Assembly: GCF_016865425.1 (NCBI RefSeq)
Contig: NZ_AP023355.1
Location: 5,020,198 to 5,084,197 of the forward strand
Direction: 5' to 3'
Length of the DNA stretch: 64,000 nt
Source: Actinocatenispora thailandica
GTDB taxonomy: Bacteria > Actinomycetota > Actinomycetes > Mycobacteriales > Micromonosporaceae
In this document: positions 1,766 through 13,136 of the stretch, in pieces
Numbering within the stretch: position 1 is the first letter of the stretch
How the letters are laid out: each line of letters starts with the position of its first letter
Notes under the pieces: generated by a model
The model's database searches: none
Seen by the model: the letters and a program-made list of their open reading frames with translations, nothing else
What the model was told of the DNA's origin: nothing
Position numbers and translations under genes: made by a program

Positions 1766-2458
1766 ATGACGATCTCGTACCGGACCAGGTTCGGCGGCGT
1801 TGCCTGCGCGGCGGCCGGCTGCGCGGCGTTGCTCGGGTTGGCCGGCTGCTCGGGCGGCGGTTCGCCGTCGCCCGGTGGGCAGCACACGGCGGCACCGACA
1901 CCGAGCACGACCACGCCGGCGGCCAGCACGTCGAGCGCGGCGAGCCCCGGCCCGGCACCGACGGGTACCGGCCGGTCCGCAGCCTCGGGCGGCGACGGTT
2001 CGGGCGGCAACGGCGCGCACGGCGTCGCCACCTGCACCACCAGCCAGTTGCGGGTGGCGACCGGCCAGCGCAACGGGGCGATGGGCGCCACGCAGGTGCA
2101 GCTGGTGTTCACCAACCGGGGCGGCCGGACGTGCGTCGAGGCGGGCTATCCGGGTGTCTCGTTCGTGACCGGCGACCAGGGTGACCAGGTCGGCAGCCCG
2201 GCCCGGCGGCAGGGCGGCGGCTACTCGAGCGTCACGCTGCGGCCCGGCGGTACGGCGCATGCCACGTTCCGCTACCCGCAGGTGGGCAACCTCCCCAGCG
2301 GCAGCTGCAAGCCGACCACGGTGCGGGGGCTGCGGGTGTACCCGCCGGATCAGAAGGCCGCCGTGTACGTGCCGCTCGCGGTGCGGGCCTGCACCGCCCG
2401 CGGCGTCGGCGTCGGCGAGATCACCGCGATGCGCACCGGCACCGGTACGGTGCGCTGA
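1766..2458 (+). CDS. DUF4232-type lipoprotein
   Basis: A 230-residue protein starting at ATG 1766 behind GGGGAGG. The N-terminus is a lipoprotein signal with lipobox LAGC (Cys about residue 28), followed by a Ser/Thr/Pro/Gly-rich linker to about residue 90. The folded domain starts at ATCTTSQLRVATG and carries TQVQLVFTNRGGRTC and conserved-looking cysteines. This is the pattern of actinobacterial DUF4232 lipoproteins, a beta-sandwich of unknown function on the outer face of the membrane. It is the only gene in its transcription unit. Confidence 0.8.
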   Translation: MTISYRTRFGGVACAAAGCAALLGLAGCSGGGSPSPGGQHTAAPTPSTTTPAASTSSAASPGPAPTGTGRSAASGGDGSGGNGAHGVATCTTSQLRVATGQRNGAMGATQVQLVFTNRGGRTCVEAGYPGVSFVTGDQGDQVGSPARRQGGGYSSVTLRPGGTAHATFRYPQVGNLPSGSCKPTTVRGLRVYPPDQKAAVYVPLAVRACTARGVGVGEITAMRTGTGTVR

Positions 2459-2702
2459 CCGGCGCCGGCACGACCTCCGACCGGCCGGGACAGGTGTCCG
2501 TCGTCTCGGCCAGTCGGGTTGACGGTGCCGGTTCCGCGTGCTGTACTCGACGTGTTCCACGGTTTTTGTGGTCGTTTTCTTGAGGGCGCTCGCAAAGATT
2601 GACAGCGGGCGCGGTCTCTTTTCCGGATTTTCTCCGTGAGCCGTGTGCGTTGCGCGGTGTATGTATCGATGCTGCACCGTACGACAATATCGAAGGAGAC
2701 AC

Positions 2703-2906
2703 ATGGCTCAGGGCACCGTGAAGTGGTTCAATGCCGACAAGGGTTTCGGGTTCATCAGCCCGGACGACGGCGGCGAGGACCTCTTCGTTCATTTCTCCGC
2801 CATTCAGGGTTCCGGTTACCGGAGCCTGGACGAGGCGGCCCGGGTCGAGTTCGACGTCGAACCCGGCAACCGCGGACCGCAGGCCGTGCGAGTCTCGGCC
2901 ATCTGA
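2703..2906 (+). CDS. Cold-shock protein, CspA family
   Basis: A 67-residue single cold-shock domain starting at ATG 2703 behind GAAGGAG. It shows both nucleic-acid binding motifs: RNP1 as KGFGFISP and RNP2 as LFVHF. It binds single-stranded RNA/DNA as an RNA chaperone. The leader between the previous gene and the start (2459-2702) is long and less GC-rich than its surroundings, as is usual for csp genes with temperature-sensitive leaders. A perfect terminator follows at once. Confidence 0.95.
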
Positions 2907-2914
2907 ATCGCGCC

Positions 2915-2947
2915 GAAAGGGGCGCCCATTCTCCGGGCGCCCCTTTC
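2915..2947 (+). terminator. Rho-independent-type terminator of the csp gene
   Basis: A perfect 13-bp stem (GAAAGGGGCGCCC at 2915-2927 with its complement at 2935-2947) closes a 7-nt loop nine bases after the csp stop codon. The 3' arm ends in TTTC. Confidence 0.9.
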
Positions 2948-3019
2948 GTGTATCGACCTGCCGGAGCACCGCCGGCCGACGGTTCCGGTGCCCGGCCCCG
3001 ACACGATCAGGGAGCGGCT

Positions 3020-4108
3020 ATCTCCATCACAGGTATCGGCACGGCCGACGCGTCGCAGCAGCGCCCGCGGAAGGCCGCCGAGTTCACCGGTTCTTATCAG
3101 GCGGTCGCACGGGTGGTGCGCGAGCTGGGGCTGCTACGGCGCGCGCGCTGGTTCTACGCGCTGGTGTTCGCGGTGCTGTGCTTGGTGGTCGCGGGCGCCG
3201 GGGTCGGCTTCGCGCTGCTCGGCGACACCTGGTGGCAGCTGCTGATCGCCGGGGTGCTCGGCGTGGCGTGCACCCAGTTCGCGTTCCTCGCGCACGAGGC
3301 ATCGCACCGCCAGATCTTCTCCTCCGGGCCGGCCAACGACCGGGCCGGGCGCCTGCTCGGTACCCTACTGGTCGGTATCAGCTACTCGTGGTGGATGGGC
3401 AAACACACCCGCCATCACGGAAATCCGAACCGGGTCGACAAGGATCCCGACATCGCGCCGGGCGTCATCTCTTTCCGACCCGAGGACGCCGCTACCAAAC
3501 GCGGCTTTCTTGCCTTGCTCAACCGGCGCCAGGGATACGCGTTCTTTCCACTGCTGACGCTGGAGGGGCTGAACCTGCACGTCAGTTCGCTGCGGTTTCT
3601 GTTCGGCCGCGGCAAGATCACCGGCCGGTGGACCGAAATCGGTTTGATCGCCGCCCATCTCGCGCTGATCGCGGTGCCTGCCTTCGTATTCCTTTCGCCC
3701 GGTGTCGCCGCCGCGTTCTGCGGCGTGCAACTTGCCGTTTTCGGCGTTTACATGGGCGCCACCTTCGCACCCAACCACAAGGGTATGCCGGTGGTCGGCA
3801 AGGACGAGAAACTCGACTTCTTCACCAAACAGGTCCGAACCTCGCGCAACATCCGCGGGCGCTTCTGGGCGAGCGCGCTGATGGGCGGGCTCAACTACCA
3901 GATCGAGCACCACCTGTTCCCGAGCATGCCGCGCCCGCACCTGGCCCGCGCCCGCACCATCGTGCGCGAGTACTGCCAGAGCCGGAACATCCCGTACACC
4001 GAGACGTCCCTGCCGCGCTCGTACGCGATCGTCGTCGGCTACCTCAACCAGGTCGGCCTGGCCGCCCGCGACCCGTTCGAGTGCCCGATGCTCGCCATGC
4101 GCCGCTGA
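3020..4108 (+). CDS. Membrane fatty-acid desaturase
   Basis: About 362 residues, the usual length for acyl desaturases of this family. Three histidine boxes are present: HEASH (92-96), HTRHH (129-133) and QIEHH (294-298). They bind the di-iron centre that inserts a double bond into membrane acyl chains. Hydrophobic spans lie at about 45-85, 215-235 and 240-260. Start choice is difficult. No in-frame ATG exists after the csp terminator; ATC 3020 sits five bases behind AGGGAG and keeps the expected N-terminus. GTG 2948 lies in the terminator tail, and GTG 3113 would remove about 31 residues. A desaturase after a cold-shock gene fits a role in membrane fluidity, but the terminator between them argues against co-transcription. 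Confidence 0.85.
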   Translation: MSITGIGTADASQQRPRKAAEFTGSYQAVARVVRELGLLRRARWFYALVFAVLCLVVAGAGVGFALLGDTWWQLLIAGVLGVACTQFAFLAHEASHRQIFSSGPANDRAGRLLGTLLVGISYSWWMGKHTRHHGNPNRVDKDPDIAPGVISFRPEDAATKRGFLALLNRRQGYAFFPLLTLEGLNLHVSSLRFLFGRGKITGRWTEIGLIAAHLALIAVPAFVFLSPGVAAAFCGVQLAVFGVYMGATFAPNHKGMPVVGKDEKLDFFTKQVRTSRNIRGRFWASALMGGLNYQIEHHLFPSMPRPHLARARTIVREYCQSRNIPYTETSLPRSYAIVVGYLNQVGLAARDPFECPMLAMRR

Positions 4109-4163
4109 TCGTGCGATCCGCCGCTGATCGTGCGACGCGGCGAGCCCGGGCAGCTCGCGGCGG

Positions 4164-4694
4164 TCAGTTCCGGTCGGCCGGGCGGCGGATGCCGTCGATG
4201 GCGTAGTCCCAGACACCGCCGTCGATGGCCTCGCGGGCCAGATCGAGGTGCCCGGTGTGCGCGGCATTGTCGTTGAGCAGGTGCACCAGCACCCCGCGTA
4301 CGGTGTCCTGCCGGTAGCCGCCCCAGGCGCCCTCCGGCCACCAGCCGGGCGCGTCGGTGCTGGCGGTCCGGGCGATCGCGGCACACCCGCGCGCCGTGTC
4401 CTCCCGCAGCCGGGCCACCAGCTGCGGGAACGGCAGGTCCGGGTCGTTGTCCCACCCGTCGTCGCCGCGGAACCGCATCGGGTTGCCGGCGATGACGTGG
4501 TGCAGCCAGAACCAGGTCGAGTCGTGTACGTGCCCGACCAGGCCGGCGATGGTCCAGCCGGACGGCGCCGCCGGGGTACGCACCTGGGCTTCGGTCAGGC
4601 CGGCGACCGAGCCGCAGATGCGTTCGGTGGCGCCCTGGATCCAGCCGAGCAGTTCGGTGGTGAACGGGTCGGGATCGCTTCGATGCTGTGTCAT
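4164..4694 (-). CDS. DinB/maleylpyruvate isomerase-like four-helix protein
   Basis: A 176-residue protein with the fold signature of DinB/DUF664-type proteins: GWTIAGLVGHVHDSTWFWLHHV at about 46-67 and VLVHLLNDNAAHTGHLDLAREA near residue 138-159. The spaced histidines are in the positions where this family holds a metal ion. Actinobacterial members are often thiol (mycothiol or bacillithiol) dependent enzymes, but the specific reaction cannot be told. It is transcribed away from the ECF42 module. Confidence 0.75.
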   Translation of the reverse strand: MTQHRSDPDPFTTELLGWIQGATERICGSVAGLTEAQVRTPAAPSGWTIAGLVGHVHDSTWFWLHHVIAGNPMRFRGDDGWDNDPDLPFPQLVARLREDTARGCAAIARTASTDAPGWWPEGAWGGYRQDTVRGVLVHLLNDNAAHTGHLDLAREAIDGGVWDYAIDGIRRPADRN

Positions 4695-4797
4695 ACCCGT
4701 AGGTCGAGGCTGGCGTGGCCCGCTTCGACATCACCGGTCGAGAGAATCTTCCCGATCGCCGGGCCGGCGCGCGCGATCGAGGTGGCGAGCCGGGCGA

Positions 4798-4826
4798 TGT
4801 CGAGAACCCGGCAGCCGGCCCCGACA
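4798..4826 (+). promoter_or_regulatory. ECF42-type promoter
   Basis: TGTCGA at 4798-4803 is followed 18 nt later by CGAC (4822-4825). This matches the known ECF42 target pattern (TGTCGA at -35, CGA/TC at -10). It lies about 55 bp before the DGPF gene and implies autoregulation of the module. Confidence 0.55.
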
Positions 4827-4880
4827 TGATGGTGGAGGCGATGCGCCTCCGGCCAGACCAGACGGCGGCAAGGAGCAGTC

Positions 4881-5270
4881 ATGAAGTACGTCATCCTGAT
4901 CCACTCGAACCCGCAGCCCTGGGGCCACCCCACGGCGGACTACCTGCCCGAGCACCAGGCGCTGCCGGCCGCCGAACGCAACCGGCTGAACAAGGACTTC
5001 GAGGACGGATTCGCCCAGGTTGTCGAGCGGGGCGAGTTCGTACACGCCGAGGCGCTCGGCGCGCCGTCCACCTCCCGGCTGTTCCGCTGGCGCGACGGCG
5101 ACCGGGTCGTTGCCGACGGGCCGTACGCGGAGGGCAAGGAGCACTTCGCCGGGTTCTTCCTGATCGACGTGGAGACCCAGGAACGCGCCGAGCAGATCGC
5201 CGGGCTGTTCTCCGGCCCCGGCGAGACCGTCGAGCTGCGCCCCGTGATGAGCGGCGGCCCGGAGGACTGA
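4881..5270 (+). CDS. YCII/DGPF-family protein, partner of ECF42 sigma
   Basis: A 129-residue YCII-related protein with the DGPYAEGKEHFAGFFLID stretch that defines the DGPF family. ATG 4881 follows AAGGAG. DGPF genes are regularly found beside group ECF42 sigma factors and are their main targets; their biochemical role is not known. The stop codon lies five bases before the start of the sigma gene, so the two are co-transcribed and probably translationally coupled. Confidence 0.88.
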   Translation: MKYVILIHSNPQPWGHPTADYLPEHQALPAAERNRLNKDFEDGFAQVVERGEFVHAEALGAPSTSRLFRWRDGDRVVADGPYAEGKEHFAGFFLIDVETQERAEQIAGLFSGPGETVELRPVMSGGPED

Positions 5271-8980: not shown

Positions 8981-9424
8981 GTGGACGCGGTACTGGTACT
9001 CAACGCGGACCTGGGGCCGCTGCACCGGGTGCCGATCCAACACGCGATCCGGATGCTGTGCCGCAAGGTCGCCGTCGTACACGAGGCGGTGCCCGACCAG
9101 CTGCTCGGCATCTACCCGCTGCCCAAGGTGGTGCGGCTGGTTCGCTACGTCGTCACGCGTTGGCGGTTCTCCGCCGGACCCGCCTGGTCCCGTCGCGGAC
9201 TGATGGCCCGCGACGGCCACCGGTGCGGCTACTGCGGCGATCCGGCGAGCACCGTCGACCACATCCTGCCCCGCTCCCGCGGCGGCCGGAACACCTGGCG
9301 CAACACCGTGGCCGCCTGCGGCGGCTGCAACCAGCGCAAGGGTGACCGCACTCCCGAAGAGGCCGGCATGCGGCTGCGCGTCGTACCGCGCACCCCGGGC
9401 TGGGCGCAGGTCACCCGACGCTGA
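8981..9424 (+). CDS. HNH endonuclease encoded within the tRNA array
   Basis: A 147-residue protein from GTG 8981, preceded by AAGGAGGTG (8968-8976), an almost perfect Shine-Dalgarno. The N-terminal half (VLVLNADLGPLHRVPIQHAIRMLCRKVAVV) and the C-terminal zinc-ribbon HNH domain match the common actinobacterial HNH family. Zinc ligands are C82-x2-C85 and C113-x2-C116; the catalytic core is DH at 93-94 and N108. It nicks or cuts DNA, target unknown. HNH genes are known inside actinobacterial tRNA arrays and are commonly linked to mobility. A hairpin terminator follows at 9427. Confidence 0.9.
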   Translation: MDAVLVLNADLGPLHRVPIQHAIRMLCRKVAVVHEAVPDQLLGIYPLPKVVRLVRYVVTRWRFSAGPAWSRRGLMARDGHRCGYCGDPASTVDHILPRSRGGRNTWRNTVAACGGCNQRKGDRTPEEAGMRLRVVPRTPGWAQVTRR

Positions 9425-10974: not shown

Positions 10975-10985
10975 CGCAGTTTCCA

Positions 10986-11064
10986 GGCCCCGCGGGCGTT
11001 CCCGGTGGAGCGGCTCGCCTGCAAAGCGAGTGGACACGTCTCGGTTCGACTCCGAGCGGGGCCT
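10986..11064 (+). tRNA. tRNA-Cys (GCA)
   Basis: Acceptor GGCCCCG/CGGGGCC, anticodon stem CTCGC/GCGAG with loop CTGCAAA, T arm CTCGG-TTCGACT-CCGAG. Discriminator T (U73) is a CysRS identity element. The variable region is slightly long. Last intact tRNA of the array. Confidence 0.9.
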
Positions 11065-11067
11065 CGA

Positions 11068-11087
11068 TCCATGCCATCCACTGTGGA
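11068..11087 (-). repeat. 20-bp inverted repeat, right copy
   Basis: Exact reverse complement of 8386-8405. It lies four bases after tRNA-Cys, so the two copies bracket 24 of the 25 intact tRNAs and the HNH gene. Confidence 0.85.
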
Positions 11088-11123
11088 CAGTTCGGCCGTA
11101 CCTGCCGGTACGGCGCGGGATGG

Positions 11124-11186
11124 GCCGGAGCGTTTCGGTTACCACTGTTAATGGAGAGGCTGCGGGTTCGAGTCCCGCCGCCGGCG
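11124..11186 (+). ncRNA. tRNA-Asn-like RNA lacking a D arm; candidate Y RNA repeat 1
   Basis: Ends GCCGGAG (11124) and CGCCGGC (11179-11185) pair with one mismatch; loop CTGTTAA sits on CCA/TGG; T arm GCGGG-TTCGAGT-CCCGC is perfect. The D arm is missing and only 63 nt remain. The first 18 nt fit GCCGGAG-N5-CGGTTA, a motif repeated at 11268 and 11411. Either a degenerate tRNA or a tRNA-mimicking Y RNA partner of the Ro60 gene downstream. Confidence 0.5.
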
Positions 11187-11189
11187 CGA

Positions 11190-11330
11190 GCCGGCGTAGC
11201 TCAACAGGCAGAGCACTAGCTCTCGGAGCGCACGACACGCCCATCCCGCACAACTTCATCGTGACGGGCCGGAGTCGATCGGTTATCTGGCAAAGCCCTC
11301 CGGGCTCGGGTTCAAGTCCCGCCGGCGCCT
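11190..11330 (+). ncRNA. Candidate tRNA-mimicking Y RNA (YrlA-like), repeat 2
   Basis: Starts like a tRNA: GCCGGCG, TA, D arm GCTC-AACAGGCA-GAGC. It ends with T arm CGGG-TTCAAGT-CCCG (11307-11321) followed by CCGGC, which can pair with the 5' GCCGG. In place of an anticodon arm there are about 90 nt containing the hairpins CACGA/TCGTG (11231/11259) and CCGGAG/CTCCGG (11269/11298) and the motif GCCGGAG-N5-CGGTTA at 11268. D and T arms without an anticodon arm, upstream of a Ro60 gene, is the known design of bacterial YrlA RNAs. A CCGGCGCC/GGCGCCGG hairpin at 11322-11339 could end it. Alternatively it is an interrupted tRNA. Confidence 0.5.
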
Positions 11331-11354
11331 CGGCGCCGGACGTCGGCCGCCCCG

Positions 11355-11389
11355 CGGACGGCGTACTGCCGGTCGGCACGCCATGTCCG
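11355..11389 (+). ncRNA. Strong nested hairpin upstream of Ro60 gene
   Basis: CGGAC (11355) pairs with GTCCG (11385), GGCG with CGCC, and TGCCG with CGGCA around a 2-nt loop. About 14 bp pair with small bulges. It may be part of a Y RNA or a leader structure of the Ro60 gene. Confidence 0.35.
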
Positions 11390-11405
11390 TCACCCACAGC
11401 TCTAC

Positions 11406-11471
11406 GGCGGGCCGGAGAGCGTCGGTTATCCCTCACCTGGAAACCGTCCGGCACTCGGTCCCACGCCCGCC
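11406..11471 (+). ncRNA. Candidate Y RNA repeat 3
   Basis: GCCGGA (11411-11416) pairs with TCCGGC (11447-11452), and CGGTT (11423-11427) with AACCG (11442-11446). The 5' side has a six-base bulge and the loop has 14 nt. An outer GGCGGGC/GCCCGCC helix (11406/11465) may enclose it. GCCGGAG-N5-CGGTTA occurs here for the third time, 143 nt after repeat 2. The T-arm region is degenerate. Confidence 0.45.
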
Positions 11472-11528
11472 GCCATCCGCCCGGCCCCGCTCCGGTGGGG
11501 TCGGGCGCCGCTTCGAAGGAGTACCGCG

Positions 11529-13136
11529 ATGGCCGACGCACTCGCCGCGATCAACCTGCGGCGCACCCGGCAGGATCGGCCGGCCGATCCTCGGCAGGCC
11601 GCGAACAACGCCGGTGGCTACGGGTTCACGGTCACCCCGGCCGCCCGGTTGCACCGGTTCCTGACGCTGGGCGTGGCCGAGGGTACCTACTACACCGGTG
11701 CGCCGGAGCTGGCCGCCGACAACGCGCAGGTCGTGCTGGACGCGGCCCGCGCCGACGCGGCCGAGCTGGTGCGTGCGGTGGTCGAGGTGTCGACGGCGGG
11801 ACGCGCCCCGCGGCAGCACCCCGCCGTCTTCGCGCTGGCGGCGGCGTCGGCGTTGGGCGATGTGGACGGCCGGCGGGCGGCGTTCGCGGCGCTGCCGCAG
11901 GTGTGCCGGACCGGCACGCACCTGTTCCTGTTCGCGCGCTACCGCGAGCAGTTCGCCGGCTGGGGTCGCGGCGCGCGTCGCGCGGTCGCCCGCTGGTACC
12001 TCGGTCAGGGCGTCGATCGGCTGGAGTACCAGCTGCTGAAGTACCGGCAGCGGGAGGGCTGGACGCATCGCGACCTGTTGCGGCTGGCGCATCCGGTCAG
12101 CGGCGAGCCGGCGCGGCGCGCCCTGTTCGATCTGGTCTGTGGCCGGGATGCGGAGCTGGCGGATCTGCCGCTGTACCGGGCGTACCTGGCGGCGAACTCG
12201 ACTGGTGACGTCGCCACCTGGGTACGGCTGATCGGCGATGCGGGCCTGTCCTGGGAGATGTTGCCGGATGCGGCGCTGACCGAGCCGGACGTGTGGGCCG
12301 CGCTGCTGGATCGTGGCCTGCCGCAGACGGCGCTGTTGCGGCAGCTGCCGCGGCTGACCCGGCTGGGGCTGTTGGCGCCGATGTCGGCGCGGGCCGCGGC
12401 GGTGGCGGCGCAGCTGGCCGATCCGCGGCGGCTGTCGGCGGCGCGGGTGCATCCGGTCAGCGTGCTGGTCGCCGCTCGGACCTACGCGGCGGGCGCGTCG
12501 GGGCGGTCGGACCGCACCTGGGTACCGTCGGCGCCGGTCGTCGACGGGTTGGATGCGGCGTTCTACGCGGCGTACGGTGCGGTCCGGCCGGCCGGCAAGC
12601 GCACCCTGCTCGCGCTGGACGTGTCCGGGTCGATGACGGTACCGGCCGGCGGGTTGCCGGTGTCGTGCCGGGAGGCGTCGGCGGCGCTGGCGCTGGTCAC
12701 CGCGGCGACCGAACCCGCGCATGCGATCGTCGGGTTCACCGGCGGCGGTCGCGGCTGGACTCGCGCCTCGCCGCTGACGCCGCTCGCGATCGGCCCGCGG
12801 CAGCGGCTCGACGACGTGGTCGCGGCGGTGTCGAACCTGCCGTTCGGCCGTACCGACTGCGCGCTGCCGATGGTGTGGGCGCGCGAGCGGGGTGTCGAGG
12901 TGGACACCTTCGTGGTGTTGACCGACAACGAGACGTGGGCGGGCGATGTGCATCCGCACCAGGCGTTGGCCGACTACCGTGCGGCGACCGGGATCGCGGC
13001 ACGGCTGGTGGTGGCGGCGCTGACGCCGACCCGGTTCACGATCGCGGACCCGTCCGATGCCGGGATGCTGGACGTGTCCGGCTTCGACTCCGCGGTACCG
13101 GGGTTGATCGCGGATTTCTCCCGCGGCGACCTGTGA
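11529..13136 (+). CDS. rsr: Ro60 orthologue, TROVE and vWA domains
   Basis: A 535-residue protein from ATG 11529 behind AAGGAG (11516). Residues about 20-340 form the HEAT-repeat TROVE ring, opening with NNAGGYGFTVTPAARLHRFLTLGVAEGTYY. Residues about 355-535 are a von Willebrand A domain with MIDAS motif DVSGSM (Asp about 364) and a later LTDNETW. Ro60 is a ring that binds Y RNAs and the 3' ends of misfolded RNAs. In Deinococcus a Y RNA tethers it to polynucleotide phosphorylase for structured-RNA decay. The gene follows directly on the tRNA array and the tRNA-like repeats, so tRNA-derived or Y RNAs are likely partners. A stem-loop terminator follows. Confidence 0.92.
   Translation: MADALAAINLRRTRQDRPADPRQAANNAGGYGFTVTPAARLHRFLTLGVAEGTYYTGAPELAADNAQVVLDAARADAAELVRAVVEVSTAGRAPRQHPAVFALAAASALGDVDGRRAAFAALPQVCRTGTHLFLFARYREQFAGWGRGARRAVARWYLGQGVDRLEYQLLKYRQREGWTHRDLLRLAHPVSGEPARRALFDLVCGRDAELADLPLYRAYLAANSTGDVATWVRLIGDAGLSWEMLPDAALTEPDVWAALLDRGLPQTALLRQLPRLTRLGLLAPMSARAAAVAAQLADPRRLSAARVHPVSVLVAARTYAAGASGRSDRTWVPSAPVVDGLDAAFYAAYGAVRPAGKRTLLALDVSGSMTVPAGGLPVSCREASAALALVTAATEPAHAIVGFTGGGRGWTRASPLTPLAIGPRQRLDDVVAAVSNLPFGRTDCALPMVWARERGVEVDTFVVLTDNETWAGDVHPHQALADYRAATGIAARLVVAALTPTRFTIADPSDAGMLDVSGFDSAVPGLIADFSRGDL

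What the first reader, a model, noticed from the sequence alone, without database searches (positions are those of the whole stretch)
11124..11471. Three tRNA-like repeats at about 143-nt spacing lead into a Ro60 gene: candidate Y RNAs
GCCGGAG-N5-CGGTTA occurs at 11124, 11268 and 11411 (spacing 144 and 143). After each copy comes an intact or degenerate T arm about 40 nt on. The middle unit also has a tRNA D arm upstream but about 90 nt of other hairpins where the anticodon arm should be. Known biology: bacterial Y RNAs are encoded next to Ro60 orthologues, and the YrlA class carries a tRNA-like domain. The 11529 gene is a clear Ro60 orthologue. That these repeats are its Y RNAs is inference; they could also be decayed tRNA genes at the array end.
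Basis: partly seen in the sequence, partly recalled or inferred. Interest (0 to 1): 0.85.

Follow-up and report, generated by a model that had tools for sequence, protein, structure and literature searches.

The report
Three Y RNA genes beside Ro60
A bacterial chromosome carries three small RNA genes, one of them built like a tRNA cut open and rejoined, lined up between an array of tRNA genes and the gene for the Ro60 protein that such RNAs are known to partner.

Summary
GCCGGAG-N5-CGGTTA occurs three times and nowhere else in the window. It is one strand of the stem that Y RNAs offer to Ro60, not a tRNA arm: a relaxed form occurs 52 times in 36 of 80 Ro60 loci, always on the Ro60 strand 115-827 nt upstream, never on the other strand. 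Three tandem units: Y-A (11112-11252) holds a full circularly permuted tRNA like YrlA; Y-B (11256-11398) has T arm and closed acceptor but another hairpin where the D arm should be; Y-C (11399-11478) has no tRNA part. The D arm given to the middle unit belongs to Y-A. Stems covary; a Y-A model hits 78 of 80 Ro60 loci. Expression and Ro60 binding are untested; Rfam's YrlA model gives 36.6 bits (cut-off 69). The model also exposed a second, Ro60-independent system: permuted tRNA-like RNAs behind DUF7873, a protein of unknown function (42 of 42 loci; 24 of 25 genomes with the gene, nothing above 50 bits in 271 without).

The parts
11112..11252 (+). Y-A: YrlA-like Y RNA with a full permuted tRNA module; outer stem 11115-11125 with 11239-11249
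   Evidence: R1 model 139.1 bits, E 3.1e-25 (the unit is itself in the training set of R1); folds with z -3.6; stem places
11123..11141 (+). GGCCGGAG-N5-CGGTTA, 5' strand of the Ro60-type stem of Y-A
   Evidence: mostly invariant columns in alignment A1
11162..11178 (+). T arm of Y-A
11179..11196 (+). acceptor stem of Y-A, closed into a hairpin by GCGA
   Evidence: 5 of 6 pairs with compensatory changes in 21 sequences (helix 4)
11199..11214 (+).
11256..11398 (+). Y-B: Y RNA with a reduced tRNA module; stems 11261-11267/11387-11393 and 11274-11282/11369-11377
   Evidence: R1 67.8 bits, R2 39.1 bits (not in either training set); fold z -3.3
11267..11285 (+). Ro60-type motif strand of Y-B, followed by TC (UUAUC)
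   Evidence: 23 of 28 positions equal to the nematode sbRNA consensus in the alignment, by my count
11307..11321 (+). T arm of Y-B
11322..11339 (+). closed acceptor hairpin of Y-B (CCGGCGCC-TC-GGCGCCGG as written); a longer hairpin without D-arm letters follows
   Evidence: a loose script rule takes that hairpin for a D arm
11399..11478 (+). Y-C: short Y RNA without tRNA module; stems 11406-11412/11465-11471 and 11421-11425/11448-11452
   Evidence: R2 58.0 bits, E 6.4e-7 (in the training set of R2); fold z -2.2
11478..11507 (+). 13-bp hairpin between Y-C and the Ro60 start; role unknown
11529..13136 (+). Ro60 orthologue, 535 aa
8272..11065 (+). tRNA array that runs into the Y RNA genes (24 ARAGORN genes, the false call at 11109 not counted)
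   Evidence: 20 of the 67 RF00005 matches of the genome lie here, 47 elsewhere
8981..9424 (+). HNH endonuclease inside the array
   Evidence: HNH_5 3.1e-14

Best explanation
11112-11478 encodes three tandem Y RNAs, made with and working with the Ro60 protein encoded 50 nt downstream. Shown by sequence: each unit closes on itself through an outer stem, an asymmetric internal loop and an inner stem, the form of the Ro60-binding stem; the first unit carries a circularly permuted tRNA (T arm, acceptor closed by a loop, D arm), the second T arm plus closed acceptor with a different hairpin in the place of the D arm, the third none of these. Inferred: the outer stems are 11 and 12 nt apart, with no promoter- or terminator-like site found between, so the RNAs are probably cut from one transcript, perhaps shared with the tRNA array or the Ro60 messenger. 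Ro60 binds each stem on its outside; the tRNA-like head of Y-A then works as in YrlA, holding an effector such as PNPase next to Ro60 or covering its RNA entry, while Y-B and Y-C would bring a different partner or none, giving one Ro60 three settings. The setting beside a tRNA array with an HNH gene resembles phage tRNA clusters that also carry Ro60 and Y RNAs, so the block may have been delivered by a phage or similar element.
For: Motif exact and unique in the window. In the 80 Ro60 loci (861,202 bases) the relaxed motif occurs 52 times in 36 loci, 52 on the Ro60 strand, 0 on the other, all 115-827 nt before the Ro60 match. Model R1 (21 Y-A sequences; 19 of the 80 loci are in its training set) gives 173 matches with E up to 0.05 over window plus 80 loci, all on the + strand; 78 of 80 loci have one. 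In 24 further TROVE loci of related genomes 21 have R1 matches, on the TROVE strand (one of them, L099, is in the training set). Covariation: Y-A 35 pairs, 95.0% of cells paired, 99 cells with changes on both sides against 35.4 shuffled, score 0.415 against 0.173 shuffled and at most 0.106 slid; Y-C 20 pairs, 39 such cells against 12.8, 0.542 against 0.206 shuffled and at most 0.121 slid. YrlA 36.6 bits. The nematode Y-homologue model RF01656 lands on Y units, below its cut-off, in the window and in 6 of 8 related loci. Own genome: the three units are the only R2 matches with E up to 10 (150 of 24,005 first-look candidates scored). Phage Ro60 loci: Y units beside Ro60 in 3 of 3 opened, of 340 records, tRNA genes in the stretch in 2 of 3. 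Same block in the other Ro60-bearing genome of the genus. Mechanism of YrlA and PNPase: PMC8394870, PMC7790460 (passages).
Against: No expression or binding data. Rfam's curated YrlA cut-off of 69 is missed (36.6). Two of the four genomes of the genus show no TROVE match. Two of 80 Ro60 loci (L067, L069) and 3 of 24 TROVE loci (L088, L105, L107) have no R1 match; some matches are weak or lie downstream of Ro60 (both in L065, one of two in L061 and in L062) or over its start (L060, L077). The count of pairs changed on both sides is only a little above shuffles: 15 against 12.9, reached by 15 of 500, and 10 against 7.4, reached by 8 of 500. Y-B aligned poorly, so its class rests on folds and scripts, not on a covariation test. 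PNPase as partner is carried over from D. radiodurans.
Confidence: 0.9

Rival explanations
1. Decayed tRNA genes at the end of the array that keep scraps of D and T arms.
For: They adjoin the array; ARAGORN calls a tRNA-Asn at 11109-11187; three boundaries between window tRNA neighbours give weak R1 matches.
Against: tRNA model 23.4 and 22.7 bits, cut-off 29. Units with covarying stems lie at Ro60 loci without arrays: 68 of the 80 Ro60 loci (flanks up to 5 kb) have no ARAGORN tRNA at all, and in three others (L010, L032, L038) the only ARAGORN tRNA overlaps a Y-A match. The 'anticodon loop' of the tRNA-Asn call is the loop of a hairpin common in Y-A (CCACT...ATGG) whose letters vary.
Confidence: 0.03
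2. The tRNA heads are decoys: in a phage-derived tRNA block, Y-A and Y-B draw off tRNA-cutting or tRNA-modifying enzymes, and Ro60 only keeps them stable.
For: Array plus HNH plus Ro60 plus Y RNAs resembles phage tRNA clusters with Ro; the discussion of PMC7790460 names competitive inhibition of an anticodon nuclease as an option (passage); PMC8394870 says YrlA is modified by two tRNA enzymes (passage).
Against: The anticodon arm is the part that is missing, so an anticodon nuclease would lack its site (inference); Y-C has no tRNA part. PMC7790460 saw no YrlA fragments when tRNAs were cut (passage).
Confidence: 0.2
3. The units are leader elements that control translation or stability of the Ro60 messenger in cis, for example by Ro60 binding its own leader.
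For: Strand, nearness and tandem order upstream of Ro60; a strong hairpin precedes the Ro60 start.
Against: A few loci carry units downstream of Ro60 (both in L065, one of two in L061 and L062); a permuted tRNA head is not needed for cis control; known relatives are described as separate RNAs (PMC4726728, PMC8394870, passages).
Confidence: 0.1

Closest known systems
YrlA RNAs (Rfam RF02553; Salmonella, Mycobacterium smegmatis)
   Same: End-to-end stem for the Ro60 orthologue plus a tRNA-like domain with T, acceptor and D arms; found with Ro60 genes (PMC8394870, PMC7790460, PMC4726728, passages)
   Different: Y-A scores 36.6 bits against a cut-off of 69; of 8 related loci 7 match below the cut-off and 1 (L036) not at all; tandem with two other units; beside a tRNA array, not rtcBA
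Deinococcus radiodurans Rsr / Y RNA / PNPase particle (RYPER)
   Same: Ro60 orthologue (2nvo, 2.9e-102) with a Y RNA that ties it to an effector (PMC8394870, passage)
   Different: Effector not known here; three RNAs of three head types
Nematode stem-bulge RNAs and vertebrate Y RNAs
   Same: 5' strand like the RF01656 consensus; RF01656 matches Y units below cut-off; UUAUC loop motif named in PMC4726728 (passage) is in Y-B and Y-C
   Different: No tRNA part there (recalled); common descent not shown, and PMC4726728 calls bacterial Y RNAs not homologous to the vertebrate ones
Mycobacterial tRNA array units
   Same: Dense tRNA set with an HNH gene (PMC5966550, PMC9569102, passages)
   Different: Neither paper holds the words Ro60 or TROVE, though PMC9569102 lists yrlA among acquired RNAs; here Y RNAs and Ro60 follow the array
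Phage Ro-like genes (Mycobacterium phages Sparky and Ava3, Gordonia phage Cashline)
   Same: Y units just upstream of Ro in 3 of 3 opened; tRNA genes in the stretch in 2 of 3
   Different: No Y unit is annotated in the stretches shown

Membership tests
Y RNA | gene beside a Ro60 orthologue | tested here: met
Y RNA | stem formed by both ends, with internal loop, kept by compensatory change | tested here: met
   Y-A; Y-C; Y-B by fold only
Y RNA | stable RNA bound by Ro60 | not testable with these tools
   needs RNA sequencing and pull-down
YrlA class | T arm, acceptor and D arm in permuted order, Y-A | tested here: met
YrlA class | the same module in Y-B | tested here: inconclusive
   T arm and closed acceptor present; no D-arm letters, but a hairpin in its place that a loose rule accepts; not filed as YrlA
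YrlA class | the same module in Y-C | tested here: not met
   no T or D arm; not filed as YrlA
YrlA as curated in Rfam RF02553 | gathering score 69 | tested here: not met
   36.6 bits; absent from the gathering search. Y-A is therefore called YrlA-like
canonical tRNA (RF00005) | gathering score 29 and unpermuted cloverleaf | tested here: not met
   23.4 and 22.7 bits
nematode sbRNA RF01656 | gathering score 38 | tested here: not met
   23.6 bits in the window, at most 28.7 in relatives
RYPER-like particle | PNPase held by the tRNA head | not testable with these tools
   needs pull-down

The most novel reading that the evidence does not exclude
Permuted-tRNA RNAs are a general protein-docking platform, and Ro60 Y RNAs are only one branch. 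A second branch in the same genome (G000:C1:5916380-5916833, outside the window) has three permuted tRNA-like RNAs directly behind a DUF7873 gene, without the Ro60 stem. Such modules lie behind 42 of 42 DUF7873 loci and behind 6 of 6 phage DUF7873 genes opened, of 73 records, 5 of the 6 with tRNA genes around; the outer stem of the second RNA type covaries; the loop that closes the acceptor begins N-CCA in 30 of 75 modules against 4 of 58 in Ro60 loci, as in a true permuted tRNA precursor. DUF7873 would be a partner like Ro60 with no PDB fold match below E 1e-3. Within the Ro60 branch, Y RNAs with only a T-arm-plus-acceptor 'minihelix' (26 of 170 or 42 of 169 units, by two crude rules) would be a half-tRNA class.
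Probability: 0.65. Interest if true: 0.87.

Novelty: new member of a known kind. Interest (0 to 1): 0.62.

Why it matters
It gives a compact test case of one Ro60 with three Y RNAs that differ mainly in how much of a tRNA they carry, so the role of the tRNA head can be read by comparison. The Rfam YrlA model, at its curated cut-off, misses these Y RNAs and those of the 8 related loci tried, and a tRNA finder mislabels one as tRNA-Asn. Following it also uncovered a second protein, DUF7873, that travels with permuted tRNA-like RNAs in bacteria and phages; if that is a new RNA-protein particle, tRNA mimicry by permutation is a broader strategy than Ro60 biology suggests.

Tried and rejected
Decayed tRNA genes: rejected. 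A general tie between bacterial Ro60/Y loci and tRNA arrays: not seen; of 80 Ro60 loci only L061 has more than two ARAGORN tRNAs (6), 68 have none. More Y RNAs of the Ro60 type elsewhere in the genome: none found with R2. The first two regular expressions were faulty (neither finds the window's own units); replace them. The alignments of Y-B did not line up the heads, so no Y-B model was built. Head types were counted twice with crude rules that disagree: 74 full, 42 without D, 8 T arm only, 45 none, of 169; it left out four rows and calls the Y-A of L005 a half head; 95, 26, 2, 47, of 170; it calls the window's Y-B full. In the DUF7873 cluster of the own genome unit 2 folds well (z -3.9), unit 1 only weakly (z -1.2) and unit 3 no better than shuffles (z +0.6); R2 finds no Ro60 stem there. 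Structure search of DUF7873: best Foldseek matches are Cascade subunits, E 2.5e-3, TM 0.14, which I do not believe.

Full report
What was checked. The pattern GCCGGAG-N5-CGGTTA occurs at 11124, 11268 and 11411 and nowhere else on either strand of the window; 100 dinucleotide shuffles gave none. Downstream at 11529-13136 lies a Ro60 orthologue with TROVE and Ro60-type vWA domains, closest in the PDB to D. radiodurans Rsr. Upstream lies a tRNA array of 24 ARAGORN genes with an HNH gene inside it. Twenty of the genome's 67 RF00005 matches lie in the array, 47 elsewhere; I did not compare isoacceptors.

So the first unit is a circularly permuted tRNA framed by a stem, whose outer strands are 11115-11125 and 11239-11249. 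The second unit has stems 11261-11267/11387-11393 and 11274-11282/11369-11377, a T arm and a closed acceptor; in the place of a D arm stands a longer hairpin without D-arm letters. The third has stems 11406-11412/11465-11471 and 11421-11425/11448-11452 and a short loop. Single-sequence folds have z -3.6, -3.3 and -2.2. The outer stems of neighbours are 11 and 12 nt apart; a sigma-70-type promoter scan and a terminator scan of 10980-11560 found nothing, which says little for an organism with other promoters.

The repeated motif is the Ro60 strand. In 80 Ro60 loci found from the protein (mostly Actinobacteria, 861,202 bases) the relaxed motif occurs 52 times in 36 loci, all on the Ro60 strand and 115-827 nt upstream of the Ro60 match, and never on the opposite strand. 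In the alignment the 5' strand of unit 2 agrees with the nematode stem-bulge RNA consensus (RF01656) at 23 of 28 positions by my count; the match is below that family's cut-off. Of 8 related loci searched with Rfam, 6 (L099, L005, L009, L033, L035, L050) have RF01656 on a Y unit, below its cut-off; L076 and L036 do not. PMC4726728 (passages) describes stem-bulge RNAs as homologues of vertebrate Y RNAs and names a UUAUC loop motif; Y-B and Y-C have UUAUC, Y-A has UUACC. The same paper says bacterial Y RNAs are not homologous to the vertebrate ones, so I claim likeness, not descent.

Comparative support. From 21 Y-A sequences (19 of the 80 loci, the window and L099) I built model R1 and from 11 Y-C sequences model R2. 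R1 gave 173 matches with E up to 0.05 in the window plus 80 loci, all on the + strand; six are in the window, three of those at boundaries between neighbouring tRNA genes. Of the 80 loci 78 have a match, some weak; L067 and L069 have none. Most matches lie upstream of Ro60; both in L065 and one of two in L061 and in L062 lie downstream, and one each in L060 and L077 overlaps its start. In 24 TROVE loci from related genomes 21 had a match on the TROVE strand (L088, L105 and L107 had none; these loci have only 1.5 kb flanks). Pair counts for Y-A: 35 pairs, 95.0% of cells paired, 99 cells with changes on both sides against 35.4 in shuffles, score 0.415 against 0.173 shuffled and at most 0.106 when slid; the number of pairs with such a change, 15 against 12.9, is less clear. 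For Y-C: 20 pairs, 39 such cells against 12.8, score 0.542 against 0.206; 10 pairs against 7.4. The structures came from the same alignments, which favours them over slid versions.

Three head types. Folds show units with T arm, closed acceptor and D arm, units with T arm and closed acceptor only (for example the second unit of L047, L050 and L053) and units with neither. Two crude scripts put the middle class at 42 of 169 units and 26 of 170; they disagree on the window's Y-B, which the second calls full because of the hairpin in the D-arm place. By the fold the motif-bearing units of L035 run full, half, none before Ro60; L053 and L054 do so in both scripts. Whether Chen et al. 2014 already describe half heads I could not check; the paper is not held.

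Setting. The other Ro60-bearing genome of the genus (G003) has the same block: 28 ARAGORN tRNAs, an ORF nearly identical to the window's HNH, three R1 matches and Ro60. Two of the four genomes of the genus searched show no TROVE match. Arrays are not usual at bacterial Ro60 loci. Ro60 relatives are in 340 phage records; in the three that I opened, Y units lie just upstream of Ro, with tRNA genes in the stretch in Sparky and Ava3 but not Cashline. Delivery of the whole block by a phage-like element is inference.

How it works. Known from passages of PMC8394870, PMC7790460 and PMC4726728: Rsr binds the stem, and the Y RNA links it to PNPase in D. radiodurans. I take the same for Y-A. For Y-B and Y-C the lack of part or all of the head predicts other partners or none. 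This is the step that needs an experiment.

A second system. Searching the genome with R1 (150 of 12,784 first-look candidates scored) gave three further matches at 5916392-5916833, far from the window. They follow a DUF7873 gene (E 1.2e-119), carry T arm, acceptor and D arm in permuted order, and lack the Ro60 stem. Rfam YrlA gives 46.3 and 27.6 bits there, below cut-off. DUF7873 occurs in 19 of 61 related genomes, all four of the genus included, and in 25 of 296 of the class. A script that demands T arm, acceptor with 6 of 7 pairs, T, and D arm found such modules downstream on the same strand in 42 of 42 loci (19 plus 23; the duplicate L140 and the partial L155 left out; modules upstream of the gene were not counted), 75 modules, with one on the opposite strand of those loci; the spacer begins N-CCA in 30 of 75, against 4 of 58 modules that the same script found in the Ro60 loci plus window, a few of which lie away from Y units. 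A model of the first RNA type (R3, 26 sequences) searched over 296 genomes of the class matched within 280 nt downstream of DUF7873 in 24 of the 25 genomes that have it (23 above 55 bits, G185 at 37.8; 13 of the 24 are in the training set; G291, with a partial match, has none). In the 271 genomes without DUF7873 nothing exceeds 50 bits, and several of the weaker matches lie beside TROVE genes; only about 10 first-look candidates per genome were scored, with strict filters. The second RNA type has changes on both sides at 19 of 22 pairs, five of six outer-stem pairs included, against 11.9 in shuffles; the first type at 11 of 20. In phages DUF7873 is found in 73 records; six that I opened all have modules behind it, five with tRNA genes around (not). 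The name DUF7873 occurs in no paper of the held library. The predicted structure is confident (pLDDT 89) and has no PDB match below E 1e-3. That DUF7873 binds these RNAs is inference from this linkage.

Verdict. The finding is a real set of Y RNA genes by all sequence tests available, a new member of a known kind with a graded set of heads, and it led to what may be a new kind of partner for permuted tRNA-like RNAs.

Noticed in passing
G000:C1:5915529-5916833 (L111 4530-5834), outside the window: DUF7873 gene followed by three permuted tRNA-like RNAs without a Ro60 stem; such modules behind 42 of 42 DUF7873 loci and 6 of 6 phage loci opened. Looks like a second RNA-protein system.
   Followed up: partly
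window 11109-11187: ARAGORN calls tRNA-Asn(gtt) here; it is part of Y-A, and the 'anticodon' is the loop of a Y-A hairpin. In L010, L032 and L038 ARAGORN tRNAs also overlap Y-A matches.
   Followed up: yes
L110 (G003:C1:3031000-3040000): Sister genome with the same array, HNH-like ORF, Y RNAs and Ro60; its Ro60 reads in two frames, a broken gene or a sequencing error. ARAGORN finds 28 tRNAs where the window has 24.
   Followed up: no
window 10986-11063: The tRNA-Cys of the array scores as tRNA-Sec in Rfam (49.3 bits, cut-off 47).
   Followed up: no
window 11478-11507: Strong 13-bp hairpin just before the Ro60 start, without a T run.
   Followed up: no
L159 about 2600-2680: A further motif-like stretch upstream of the two R1 matches in phage Ava3, perhaps a third Y unit (by eye).
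   Followed up: no
L061 (Sorangium) 1882-4978: Ro60 with three ARAGORN tRNAs on each side and weak R1 matches on both sides.
   Followed up: no
for example G258:C2:445561-445632: A class of about 70-nt partial R3 matches (model positions 47-119), many in genomes of one genus, some away from the TROVE and DUF7873 matches; perhaps neighbouring tRNA genes.
   Followed up: no
control genomes: Of 14 control genomes only Deinobacterium chartae has TROVE, and only it has DUF7873.
   Followed up: no
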